NCBI RefSeq assembly: GCF_002752675.1
Contig: NZ_CP024608.1
Span: 5,394,001-5,458,000 of the forward strand
From: Massilia violaceinigra
GTDB lineage: Bacteria > Pseudomonadota > Gammaproteobacteria > Burkholderiales > Burkholderiaceae_D
Reading direction: 5' to 3'
Length of the DNA stretch: 64,000 nucleotides
A program made the translations under genes and the position numbers. The notes under the pieces are model-generated. The model had not been told where the DNA came from. It searched no databases and saw only the letters and a list, made by a program, of their open reading frames with translations. Positions 51,693 to 58,641 of this stretch are shown piece after piece (position 1 is the stretch's first letter; each line of letters begins with the position of its first letter).

Positions 51693-53123
51693 TCAGGGGC
51701 CGATGGTCAGGGCGAATTCCCCCCGGTCGGTAAAGTCGGGCATGCGCGCGGTGCGCAGCGCCATCAGCAGCGGCAAGGGCGAACAGGTAAAGCGCACGGT
51801 TTTCGGCTGCCCGTACATGCGCACCTGGTGCGTGGCCAGTTCGAACGCCAGCACCTCGTCCAGGTGCGGAATGTGGAGCGCCTGCGTACGCAGGAATTCG
51901 GCGAAATTGAGCGCTTCTTCGGTGGCAAACGGCTCCGGCGGCCGGGTTTTCCAGAATGCCTGCAACAGCGCGAGAAACGCCGTTTCGCCGACCGTGAGCG
52001 AAATCAGGCGGTAACTGAGCGTGATCGAATCGACGATGGTCCCGCTGCGTACCGCCGCCACCAGCTGGCGCAGCACACGAATGCCTTCATCGGCATCAAG
52101 CGGCAGCGTGCAAGGCTCGTCCGCGGCGACTCCCAGCACTTTGCGAGCCAGTGCGCGTTCCCATTGCGGCGGTGACGGCAAGGCGCTATCGACTGGCGCC
52201 GCCTGGTGGAGAACGCCGCGCGGCGCCGCGGCTGCCACTTGCAGGGTGGTCTTGCGCTCATCCCAGAGGCGGTGCAACTCGTGCAGTTGCGCCGTCAGGT
52301 GGCGATGCGCGATCTCGCGCGCGGGCATGTACGCCGGCATAATTTCAAACATCAGTGCCTTGAGATTGGGCAGCCGTGGCAGCACCGCGTGGGCCAGCTG
52401 CATCAGGTCGGCCGGCACCAGTCCGGAATGCGCATCGAGATAATACCCGTCGAGATAATCGCCGCCCGCCAGATGGACTTCGCACACGCGTTCGAGCGGC
52501 ATATCGGCGAGCGCCGCCAGCACGCTCTGGCGGCCATTGCGCTCGTTGCACCAGAGGTTATGCAGGTCGAGCAGGATGGCGCAGTCGGCTTCCTCGGCAA
52601 TGGCGCCGAAAAACGCGCCGTCCGACATTTCGCCAGGCACCGGCTGCAGGTAATTGACGCCGGTCTCGAACGCAAACGGCACCGGTAATTGGCCGCTCAG
52701 GGTCCGGATATTGGCCGCGGCCAGCGCCACCGTTTGCGCGCTTTGCAGCGGCGGCAGCAAAAAGCCGGTATTGAAGACGCCGTCCGGCCCGCTGGCGCGC
52801 GAAAAACTCAGATGCTCGCTGGCCCATGCCGCATCGAGTGCCTTGACCACATCGACAAACAGCGCGACTTGCTCAGGCTCGGGCGGCACGCTGCCGCCAA
52901 TCGGAAAACCGACGCCATGCACCAGTTTGGGATGAGGATCGGCGCGCAATTGCGCCAATACGTCGGTATTGATTGCGTATGGCACCCCGGCGGCCGCGGA
53001 TTTGAACCACGGCGGCTGGGGCTCGATTTCGATGACGTCGATCAGGTCCTTATTGGCATCGATAAACGCTTCCAGGCCGGGAAGAGAGACCATGCCAACG
53101 CCAGATTCCGGTAAATCCCGCAT
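51693..53123 (-). CDS. DUF692/MNIO-family iron enzyme with C-terminal extension
   Basis: A 476-aa protein. Residues 1-290 are a DUF692 (multinuclear non-haem iron oxidase) barrel with candidate ligands H69 (VHGVGFP), E103-H104 (SEHLSF), E153 (FETGVNYL), D186/H188 (DLHNLW), E215/H217 (EVHLAGG), D230/H232 (DAHSG) and E260 (MFEIMP). MbnB and TglH of this family modify cysteine-containing peptides. Residues about 310-476 form a second helical region that resembles DUF2063-type partner proteins (FAEFLRTQALHIPHLDEVLAFE), so enzyme and partner appear fused. It is preceded by a small cysteine-containing ORF and an ATP-grasp gene. Confidence 0.88.
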   Translation of the reverse strand: MRDLPESGVGMVSLPGLEAFIDANKDLIDVIEIEPQPPWFKSAAAGVPYAINTDVLAQLRADPHPKLVHGVGFPIGGSVPPEPEQVALFVDVVKALDAAWASEHLSFSRASGPDGVFNTGFLLPPLQSAQTVALAAANIRTLSGQLPVPFAFETGVNYLQPVPGEMSDGAFFGAIAEEADCAILLDLHNLWCNERNGRQSVLAALADMPLERVCEVHLAGGDYLDGYYLDAHSGLVPADLMQLAHAVLPRLPNLKALMFEIMPAYMPAREIAHRHLTAQLHELHRLWDERKTTLQVAAAAPRGVLHQAAPVDSALPSPPQWERALARKVLGVAADEPCTLPLDADEGIRVLRQLVAAVRSGTIVDSITLSYRLISLTVGETAFLALLQAFWKTRPPEPFATEEALNFAEFLRTQALHIPHLDEVLAFELATHQVRMYGQPKTVRFTCSPLPLLMALRTARMPDFTDRGEFALTIGP

Positions 53124-53439
53124 GGTAAGGGCTCAGTTGCTCTGGCGGAGAATCGATTGCCTGTACCGCGAGATGGGTGTTGACGCGGAAGCGGCGCTGG
53201 AATTCGTCGCCGATATCGCATCCCGACGGGCAGGCCGGGCAGCAGGGTTGCCCCGGCAGTTCTTTCCGTACGCGTCGGAACCGGCCCAGGTCGGCATACT
53301 GCTGGGTCGGCAGGGGCGCATTGACAGTGCGGTTGACGGGTTGTGCAGCCAGGGTGGATCGCAGATCGTATTGGTATCCATTGCGTGACGCTCCGTGTGA
53401 TGTCGGCAGTAACGTGTACTCTCGGGAAATGCGGCGCAT
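53050..53439 (-). CDS. Small cysteine-containing ORF upstream of MNIO, frame uncertain
   Basis: Two overlapping readings compete. The frame given here (up to 129 aa, ATG 53439) contains RVRKELPGQ then CCPACPSGC and a charged helical stretch; its base composition by codon position (low GC in position two, high in one and three) looks coding. Its start region has no clear ribosome site, and it overlaps the MNIO start by 74 bases. A second frame, 53133-53381, starts at an ATG with GGAG upstream and ends 9 bases before MNIO, but is Ser/Ala/Arg-rich like a shadow. A frame error near 53330-53380 could reconcile them. It may be the substrate or partner of the MNIO enzyme. Confidence 0.4.
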   Translation of the reverse strand: MRRISREYTLLPTSHGASRNGYQYDLRSTLAAQPVNRTVNAPLPTQQYADLGRFRRVRKELPGQPCCPACPSGCDIGDEFQRRFRVNTHLAVQAIDSPPEQLSPYHAGFTGIWRWHGLSSRPGSVYRCQ

Positions 53440-53615
53440 GGTCCCGGCAGCACTGCCTTCATCATTAATGCTGAGGCTGGCTGCGGATTAAAGTATAGGC
53501 ATCACCCACCGTGCATCCGGCGTCAAGTGCACCGACTTTGCGCGGCATCAAAGGCGGGCGCGGAACGTCCTTGATTTGCGACACTCAGCTGGCGGCGTTT
53601 TCGGCATCACCATTG

Positions 53616-56842: not shown

Positions 56843-56916
56843 TGGTCAGAAAAAAAGGTGCGCAGGAGCAGGCAAAGGGTGAAGCCGGGGCGCCGCCCGG
56901 AGGCGGCGCCGGAGCG

Positions 56917-58641
56917 TCACAGGTCGGCATCGCCGAAAGGGTTGCCGGCGTGCTGGTGTTCGACGTAATCGAGCACTTCCACGAAACGCTTGGCCGCAGC
57001 GTCGATGATGCGCTTGTCCTGGGTTTCCAGGTTGCCTTCGAAACGCGTCATTTCCACCGACAGCTGATCGCGCACGCTGCCGCGCAATTGCTGATAAAGG
57101 CGCTCGCCACGGGCCAGCAGCGTGCGCATTTCGATGCGGTCGCGCGGGTGGATTTTCAGCTGCGACAATGACGCCAGGCGCTCCTTGATTTCCTGCGGCG
57201 ACATCATGCCCGGATTGCCTTCGATAATCAGGACGGCGCTCTCGGCACCCTTGCGGGCGCTCGCCTCGACCTGCAGCAGGCCGTTCACGTCGTAAGTAAA
57301 GCGCACCTCAACCGACCTGTCGTCGCGCGTGCCGGGTGGAACCGGAACGCTCAGGGTGCCCAGCTTGATGTTATCGGCCACCATGCGCGCTTCGCCCTGG
57401 TAGACATTGATTTCGATAACGCTTTGCTGATCGTGAATCGGCGAGTAGGTCTTGACGCGGCTGACCGGCACCACGGTATTGCGCTCGATTACGGGGTCGA
57501 AGTGGCCGCTGGAGTGACCGCCCGATTCGTAGTGCATGGCGATTTCGACGCCCAGGGAGTAGGGCGAGACATCGGTCATGACGACTTCGTCGAGGGCGGC
57601 ATCCTTGCTTTTCAGGCCGGCCTGGACCGCCGCGCCGAGCGCGACGACTTCGTCCGGATTGATGTCGCAGGCTGGGAAGCGGCCAAACATGCGCGCCACC
57701 ATGCGCCGCACCACCGGCATGCGGGTGGCGCCGCCGGCCAGCACGATATTGTCGAGCTGGGCGCCGACCAGGTTGGCGTCGCGCAGGGCCCGTTCGACCG
57801 GGTGGCGCAGGCGCGCCAGCAAGGGCGCGCACAGGGTCTCGAAGGTGGGCTCGTCGAGTTCCATCGAAAAATTGTCGCTGCCTTCGGTCACGCGGATGAG
57901 CGCGCGCGGGGACGTGCTCAGCTCGCGCTTGGCCAGTTCCACCTGGGCACCGAGACGCTGCATGAAGTGGGCGTTCTCGCGATAGTTCTTGTTGAGTTTG
58001 TTGTGCTCGAAGAAACGGTCGACCAGCGCGGTGACGAAATCTTCGCCGCCCAGGAAATTATCGCCCGCCGAAGCGCGCACTTCCATCACGTTCTCGAACA
58101 GGTCGAGCACCGAGACATCGAAGGTGCCGCCGCCGAGGTCGAACACGAGGAACCTGCTTTCGCTGTCGCGCAGGTGGATGCCGTAGGCGAGGGCGGCCGC
58201 GGTCGGCTCGTTGAGCAGGCGGTCGACCTTGAGCCCGGCAAGCTGGCCGGCGGCGCGGGTGGCCTTGCGCTGGGCGTCGGAGAAATAAGCCGGAACGGTG
58301 ATGATAGCTTCCGTGACAGGCTGGCCGAGGGCGGCCTCGGCGTCTTCCTTGAGCGCGCGCAGGATCAGGGCCGACAGTTCTTCGGCGCGGAAGGCGCGCT
58401 TGCCAAGAGTGATTTTCTTGTCGCTGCCCATGTGGCGCTTGAAGGCGGCGGCACTTTGGGCAGGATGGGTTTGCAGGCGGTCGCGCGCGGCGCGGCCAAC
58501 CAGGATCGTGCCGTCTTCGTCAACGCTGACGCAGGACGGGGTGAGGACGTCGCCCAGCTGGTTGGGGATGAGGCGGGCGGCGCCGTTCTCCCAGACGGAG
58601 ATCAGGCTGTTGGTGGTGCCGAGGTCGATTCCTACGATCAT
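56917..58641 (-). CDS. hscC: Hsp70-family chaperone, HscC-like
   Basis: A 574-aa Hsp70 with a full ATPase domain (MIVGIDLGTTNSLISVWENG, AVITVPAYFSD-type motif, VFDLGGGTFDVSVLDLF, AGGATRMPVVRRM) and a substrate domain ending in a short helical lid. Length and the variant SPYSLGVEIAMHYESGGHSSG, with a DPVIERNT region, fit the HscC group rather than DnaK. HscC partners with a dedicated J protein; the J-like gene just downstream may be that partner. Start 58641 is chosen at the canonical N-terminus; an ATG at 58653 is also possible. Confidence 0.92.
   Translation of the reverse strand: MIVGIDLGTTNSLISVWENGAARLIPNQLGDVLTPSCVSVDEDGTILVGRAARDRLQTHPAQSAAAFKRHMGSDKKITLGKRAFRAEELSALILRALKEDAEAALGQPVTEAIITVPAYFSDAQRKATRAAGQLAGLKVDRLLNEPTAAALAYGIHLRDSESRFLVFDLGGGTFDVSVLDLFENVMEVRASAGDNFLGGEDFVTALVDRFFEHNKLNKNYRENAHFMQRLGAQVELAKRELSTSPRALIRVTEGSDNFSMELDEPTFETLCAPLLARLRHPVERALRDANLVGAQLDNIVLAGGATRMPVVRRMVARMFGRFPACDINPDEVVALGAAVQAGLKSKDAALDEVVMTDVSPYSLGVEIAMHYESGGHSSGHFDPVIERNTVVPVSRVKTYSPIHDQQSVIEINVYQGEARMVADNIKLGTLSVPVPPGTRDDRSVEVRFTYDVNGLLQVEASARKGAESAVLIIEGNPGMMSPQEIKERLASLSQLKIHPRDRIEMRTLLARGERLYQQLRGSVRDQLSVEMTRFEGNLETQDKRIIDAAAKRFVEVLDYVEHQHAGNPFGDADL

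What the first reader, a model, noticed from the sequence alone, without database searches (positions are those of the whole stretch)
51693..58641. Six-gene run joining Hsp70/J-like proteins with zinc-ribbon, ATP-grasp, a small Cys protein and an MNIO enzyme
All are on one strand with gaps of 74, 26, -13, about 180 and about 10 bases. MNIO (DUF692) enzymes install modifications on cysteine peptides, and ATP-grasp enzymes ligate peptides. An HscC chaperone with its own J-like membrane protein could hold the substrate. I know of no described pathway with this set. The link between the chaperone half and the MNIO half is inferred only from position.
Basis: partly seen in the sequence, partly recalled or inferred. 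Interest (0 to 1): 0.7.

Follow-up and report, generated by a model that had tools for sequence, protein, structure and literature searches.

The report
Chaperone genes beside a peptide-modifying pair
Six neighbouring genes in a Massilia bacterium look like a two-gene peptide-modification unit lying downstream of chaperone and ligase genes that its relatives have partly lost, and in this strain the peptide gene itself is broken while its enzyme is kept.

Summary
The row is real: HscC-type Hsp70, J-like/TonB-C protein, DUF2310, R2K_2 ATP-grasp, small Cys gene, MNIO, all on the minus strand. Two of six are broken here: DUF2310 is frameshifted, and the small Cys gene was read in the wrong frame; its conserved frame has a 4-bp deletion and a lost stop. 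A genome matching Massilia antarctica has all six open, and pieces of HscC in M. atriviolacea and M. rubra suggest the chaperone was once upstream there too. It is not a fixed unit: of 7 Massilia loci, 7 keep peptide and MNIO, 3 HscC-J, 4 full ATP-grasp, 2 DUF2310 (one locus, M. frigida, ends too early to judge the first genes). None of 19 loci outside Massilia matches the other four genes (some flanks short). HscC has a J-like neighbour in 26 of 27 other loci. The peptide looks like the published putative precursor family adjamnio-7 (PMC12452194). Oddity: between window and M. frigida the enzyme is constrained (dN/dS 0.14) while the precursor drifts (0.86). Mostly ordinary, with one interesting decay.

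The parts
56917..58641 (-). HscC-type Hsp70 (574 aa)
55187..56842 (-). J-like protein without HPD motif, one hydrophobic stretch near residue 330-350, TonB-C-like C-terminus
   Evidence: TonB_2 E 8.2e-6; hydropathy and absence of HPD; dN/dS 0.45 against G418, the highest there apart from the peptide
54335..55160 (-). DUF2310 (Zn-ribbon protein), frameshifted: N part 55160-54405, ribbon in another frame 54595-54335
   Evidence: PF10071 in two frames; one frame of 262 codons in G418
53616..54347 (-). R2K family 2 ATP-grasp enzyme (243 aa)
   Evidence: PF18299 E 1.9e-33; 91% identical, dN/dS 0.15 against G418
53460..53566 (-). conserved non-coding stretch with TGCCTATACTT, possible promoter/regulatory region of the peptide-MNIO pair
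   Evidence: 60 of 107 bases invariant in 7 loci, peptide frame 119 of 230, leader 34 of 78; present also in L005 and L009, which lack ATP-grasp; a 26-base core found once in the genome
53128..53381 (-). broken adjamnio-7-type precursor gene: native start 53381, 4-bp deletion after codon 4, conserved frame 53367-53128, stop changed to TAC
51693..53123 (-). MNIO enzyme with a second, C-terminal domain weakly like DUF2063 (476 aa)

Best explanation
Two modules that are neighbours. The working module is a two-gene RiPP-like pair: a small, apparently signal-peptide-less precursor with the core LGCxxCxSGxDI, and an MNIO enzyme whose own C-terminal domain probably takes the place of the usual separate partner protein. 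The enzyme's iron site (inferred from the family) oxidises one or both core cysteines, giving perhaps a metal- or stress-related product; the chemistry is inferred, not shown. The upstream HscC-J pair is a chaperone couple found in other contexts, and the R2K ATP-grasp and DUF2310 are sporadic accessory genes. HscC, J, ATP-grasp, peptide and MNIO were probably in a row before this Massilia clade split, and different species lost different parts. In this strain and in M. frigida the precursor has degenerated while MNIO is still under purifying selection.
Against: All six are open in G418, with HscC, ATP-grasp and MNIO under constraint between it and the window, so a joint role there is not excluded. 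HscC-J is beside the pair in 3 of 7 Massilia loci. The C-terminal domain matches DUF2063 only below cut-off (4 of 23 members at E 0.01; hhalign probability 1.9%). Peptide control pairs (0.27-0.31) have intervals reaching 0.71-0.89 that overlap those of the window pair, and in two control pairs some MNIO stretches of peptide length reach 0.76 and 0.90. No promoter was found by consensus before the peptide (1 in the region, on the other strand, 1.3 expected). Several of the 19 loci have short flanks (L017 3.1 kb, L023 5.3 kb, L025 7.1 kb, L019 7.3 kb in all). No tree was built, so the order of losses is inferred.
Confidence: 0.7

Rival explanations
1. A real six-gene pathway: HscC-J holds the precursor at the membrane, MNIO oxidises its cysteines, the R2K ATP-grasp ligates an amino acid or peptide to it; gaps in relatives are decay of the whole pathway.
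For: All six open and in order in G418; HscC pieces in L005 and L004 and an ATP-grasp tail in L005 suggest the row is old.
Against: M. rubra, M. aquatica, M. atriviolacea and M. mucilaginosa have an intact peptide and MNIO without HscC-J or without full ATP-grasp; 19 of 19 distant loci show none of the four; HscC lives elsewhere with other neighbours.
Confidence: 0.1
2. The precursor is not decaying but evolving fast toward a new core (window CCPACPSGC, M. frigida GCPAWSSGC), perhaps translated from another start.
For: dN/dS near 1 and a shared new Cys (SGCD) in window and M. frigida; the conserved frame stays open upstream to an ATG at 53439.
Against: In the window the frame is shifted after codon 4 of the native start, before which GGAG lies, and the stop is lost; M. 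frigida lacks a Cys that is invariant in the family alignments.
Confidence: 0.15
3. The two frame breaks are sequencing or assembly errors and the window is as intact as G418.
For: By eye DUF2310's break lies at a run of four G; G418 is open.
Against: The peptide's 4-bp deletion is not in a homopolymer, the lost stop is a substitution, and amino-acid changes are raised across the gene in M. frigida too.
Confidence: 0.15

Closest known systems
adjamnio-7 putative MNIO precursors (Antoine et al. 2025, PMC12452194)
   Same: no signal peptide, CxxC motif, next to MNIO; their modelled example is from Novilysobacter spongiicola, by name the species of L008
   Different: the window copy is broken; sections 13, 17, 18, 19, 21 and the 10 passages with fused/fusion do not mention a fused MNIO-DUF2063 enzyme, and 'chaperone' occurs 0 times in the main text; supplements not seen
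Bufferin and TglHI MNIO systems; MovX
   Different: possible partner is a domain of the enzyme, and unlike bufferins the precursor appears to lack a Sec signal; BufB, HvfB and ApyH models match far below their cut-offs
HscC-DjlB/DjlC chaperone couple of E. coli (review PMC8215388, passages)
   Same: Hsp70 of 550-580 aa with a neighbouring membrane J partner
   Different: J-like protein here lacks HPD and ends in a TonB-C-like domain
R2K ATP-grasp clade (Burroughs et al. 2015, PMC4431377, section 7 and passages)
   Same: R2K.2 family, sporadic, predicted protein-modifying peptide ligase
   Different: that paper's main text has 0 mentions of hsp70 or DnaJ

Membership tests
MNIO (PF05114) enzyme | Pfam profile over cut-off | tested here: met
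   127.5 bits against cut-off 25
MNIO (PF05114) enzyme | fold of TglH/MbnB | tested here: met
MNIO (PF05114) enzyme | multinuclear iron site and oxidation of a precursor | not testable with these tools
   His, Glu, Asp and Asn columns invariant in 23 homologues; activity not shown
adjamnio-7 precursor | CxxC peptide gene before an MNIO | tested here: met
   relatives: GCxxC before MNIO in most loci; identity with the paper's family inferred from the species name and features, its alignment (Fig. S3) was not seen
adjamnio-7 precursor | no Sec signal peptide | not tested
   stated in the paper; here judged by eye only
adjamnio-7 precursor | intact gene in the window | tested here: not met
   4-bp deletion, stop lost
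DUF2063 / PME-type partner | DUF2063 profile over cut-off or its fold | tested here: inconclusive
   19.2 bits, cut-off 27.2; 4 of 23 members at E 0.01; hhalign probability 1.9%; no solved chain below E 1; domain not folded alone
J-domain protein | HPD motif | tested here: not met
   no HPD in the protein; no J-domain Pfam hit at E 0.1
HscC subfamily of Hsp70 | HscC-specific model or deletions | not tested
   574 aa is in the 550-580 range given in PMC8215388; no HscC-named model in the hits
six-gene operon | genes stay together in relatives | tested here: not met
   complete in 2 of 7 Massilia loci (1 of the 7 not judgeable for three genes), 0 of 19 others

The most novel reading that the evidence does not exclude
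The MNIO enzyme has outlived its own precursor: in the window strain and M. frigida it is kept by selection because it now modifies a different, unlinked protein or peptide. A profile search of the window genome found no second adjamnio-7 precursor (next hit E 0.4).
Probability: 0.2. Interest if true: 0.6.

Novelty: new member of a known kind. Interest (0 to 1): 0.35.

Why it matters
It shows that a tempting chaperone-assisted RiPP operon is more likely shared neighbourhood, and points to a minimal two-gene MNIO system that is easy to test in a laboratory host. Window and M. frigida against M. antarctica form a natural experiment on whether an MNIO can live without its neighbouring precursor.

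Tried and rejected
Promoter and terminator scan: 1 promoter-like site, on the other strand (expected 1.3), and 6 terminator-like sites (expected 6.1), uninformative. Fold search with the peptide model (pLDDT 73.7, pTM 0.52, predicted for the L008 peptide): no PDB match at E 0.001, best HypA E 0.2; PDB sequence search, best E 0.82. A DUF2310-ATP-grasp association elsewhere: of 300 class genomes asked 274 were searched; DUF2310 in 6, R2K_2 in 12 at E 1e-3 but 3 over cut-off; besides the window (and later G418) no locus read had both. Of 150 family genomes asked 145 were searched: MNIO in 3, ATP-grasp in 3, Hsp70 at E 1e-120 in 27, DUF2310 in 2. Literature: 'adjamnio' gives 1 paper; at least two of HscC, ATP-grasp, DUF2310, R2K give 2 papers, neither on this set by title and abstract start; of 1,612 papers with three of MNIO, chaperone, DnaK, precursor the 10 listed hold no MNIO; MNIO/fused/DUF2063/orphan gives 4 papers, two seen in sections or passages, two as listing only. 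Supplements could not be read. The idea that HscC-MNIO adjacency is general was dropped: 1 of 27 HscC loci (L057) has a different, bufferin-type MNIO nearby on the other strand.

Full report
What is there. The window is G000:C1:5394001-5458000 of a 7.53 Mb genome; the closest named relatives of its MNIO are Massilia species. On the minus strand from 58641 to 51693 lie an Hsp70, a J-like protein with TonB-C end, DUF2310, an R2K_2 ATP-grasp, a small gene and an MNIO enzyme.

The small gene. Relatives have an open frame that corresponds to the neighbouring frame of the window (49-56% over about 100 residues in five Massilia loci, and a weak match in L021). The peptide is 86 aa in the four intact Massilia loci and in G418, and 68-145 aa in the others with starts that I chose; it ends within about 50 bases of the MNIO match or overlaps it. 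In the window this gene starts at 53381, loses 4 bases after codon 4 and has TAC where the other loci have TGA. M. frigida has an open frame, but the second core Cys, invariant in the alignments of 21 and 35 sequences, is Trp. The peptide profile returned 500 proteins at E 0.001, a round number that may be a cap.

The family. Antoine et al. 2025 (PMC12452194; abstract, sections 13, 17, 18, 19, 21 and find passages seen) named CxxC peptides without signal peptide beside MNIO cluster #7 'adjamnio-7', with a model of a Novilysobacter spongiicola protein. Our locus L008 is Lysobacter spongiicola DSM 21749. That this is the same family is inferred from species name and features; their alignment was not seen. 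Five peptides of relatives gave no match over a cut-off in Pfam or NCBIfam.

Does the row hold together? This MNIO is in 7 of 17 held genomes of the genus at E 1e-40, and all seven loci were read. All six genes: window (two broken) and G418 (all open; its peptide equals P0007 and its contig length that of a Massilia antarctica record). M. rubra (L004) and M. aquatica (L006): ATP-grasp, peptide, MNIO, no full HscC, J or DUF2310. M. mucilaginosa (L009): HscC, J, peptide, MNIO, no DUF2310 or ATP-grasp. M. atriviolacea (L005): peptide and MNIO. M. frigida (L003): the contig starts 128 bases before a truncated ATP-grasp, so HscC, J and DUF2310 could not be judged. Counts of 7: peptide-MNIO 7, HscC 3, J 3, DUF2310 2, ATP-grasp full length 4. 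L005 has a 36-bp match to the first 12 codons of HscC close to the tail of ATP-grasp, and L004 a 58-bp match to the HscC C-terminal part (none of 200 base shuffles of each stretch scored as high). HscC, J, ATP-grasp, peptide and MNIO were thus probably in a row in the clade's ancestor; for DUF2310 this is not shown. Different species lack different parts; no tree was built. Outside Massilia, 19 loci have the MNIO, 18 with a peptide, and none matches the other four genes at E 1e-3, some with short flanks.

The chaperone pair. Of 30 Hsp70 places in 145 family genomes, 27 were read; the window and two fragments on G009 and G044 were left out. These include more distant Hsp70s (48-59% identical) as well as close ones (68-78%). 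A J-like match lies beside HscC in 26 of 27 (L073 none; in L081 about 1.9 kb away), parE-HscC-J-parC in 14 of 27, and this MNIO in none. Apart from the window, the two loci where HscC-J and this MNIO are together (L009, G418) were not in that sample. E. coli HscC is stimulated by the membrane J protein DjlC, encoded nearby (PMC8215388, passages). So the pair is a module of its own, and the window genome has a second copy between parE and parC (L066).

Between the halves. A non-coding stretch of about 107 bp before the peptide is as conserved in seven loci (60 of 107 invariant) as the peptide frame (119 of 230, two degenerate copies included) and more than the leader (34 of 78). It is present where ATP-grasp is gone (L005, L009), and its 26-base core occurs once in the genome with up to 3 mismatches. 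TGCCTATACTT is invariant in all seven. I read it as the pair's own regulatory region; the consensus scan does not detect a promoter there.

Selection. Nei-Gojobori estimates: window/M. frigida MNIO 0.14 (0.09-0.20), peptide 0.86 (0.46-1.56), above every MNIO stretch of equal length in that pair (maximum 0.72). Four control pairs: peptide 0.27-0.31 with wide intervals (upper ends 0.71-0.89), MNIO 0.14-0.23, and in two of them some MNIO stretches reach 0.76 and 0.90. Against G418: HscC 0.07, J 0.45, DUF2310 N part 0.23, ATP-grasp 0.15, peptide 0.72 (0.37-1.36, window) and 0.88 (0.49-1.94, M. frigida), MNIO 0.12 and 0.16. So the enzyme is kept while its neighbouring substrate drifts. No second precursor of this family was found in the genome. 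Whether the enzyme has another substrate, or its constraint will fade later, cannot be told from sequence.

How it most likely works. Shown: pairing, motif, enzyme fold (predicted), conservation. Inferred from the MNIO family: iron-dependent oxidation of core cysteines, with the C-terminal domain presenting the precursor. Guess: a metal- or stress-related product. The HscC-J and ATP-grasp genes are best read as independent neighbours.

Verdict. A known kind of system with a probable fused enzyme, a neighbourhood that varies between species and an unexpected precursor decay; interest moderate to low.

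Noticed in passing
L066 and L064, L065, L067, L071, L078-L086: HscC and its J-like gene sit between parE and parC in 14 of 27 family loci read, including a second copy in the window's genome.
   Followed up: partly
window 55187-56842: J-like protein without HPD, with one hydrophobic stretch and a TonB-C-like C-terminus; dN/dS 0.45 against G418.
   Followed up: partly
L092 2991-4957: Second MNIO of the genome: a bufferin-like precursor (by eye) followed by a 554-aa open frame with MNIO and a DUF2063 match over cut-off.
   Followed up: partly
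L021, L024, L026 upstream of MNIO: Precursors of 140-145 aa with two copies of the Cys core in tandem.
   Followed up: no
L012 8717-10641: Peptide-MNIO pair in a record labelled Candidatus Nitrosocaldus, an archaeal MAG; contamination not checked.
   Followed up: no
L003 1-129 and L006 3740-7330: In both, other DNA joins the ATP-grasp gene near residue 152; L006 has a full and a partial copy about 3 kb apart.
   Followed up: no
L057 888-4664: A bufferin-type MNIO, a DUF2063-type gene and a third gene lie divergently beside HscC-J in another genome of the genus.
   Followed up: no
window 50268-50849 and 50902-51675: ArsN1b-type arsinothricin acetyltransferase (over NCBIfam cut-off) and a glutamine cyclotransferase downstream of MNIO, with homologues downstream in the five Massilia loci.
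   Followed up: no
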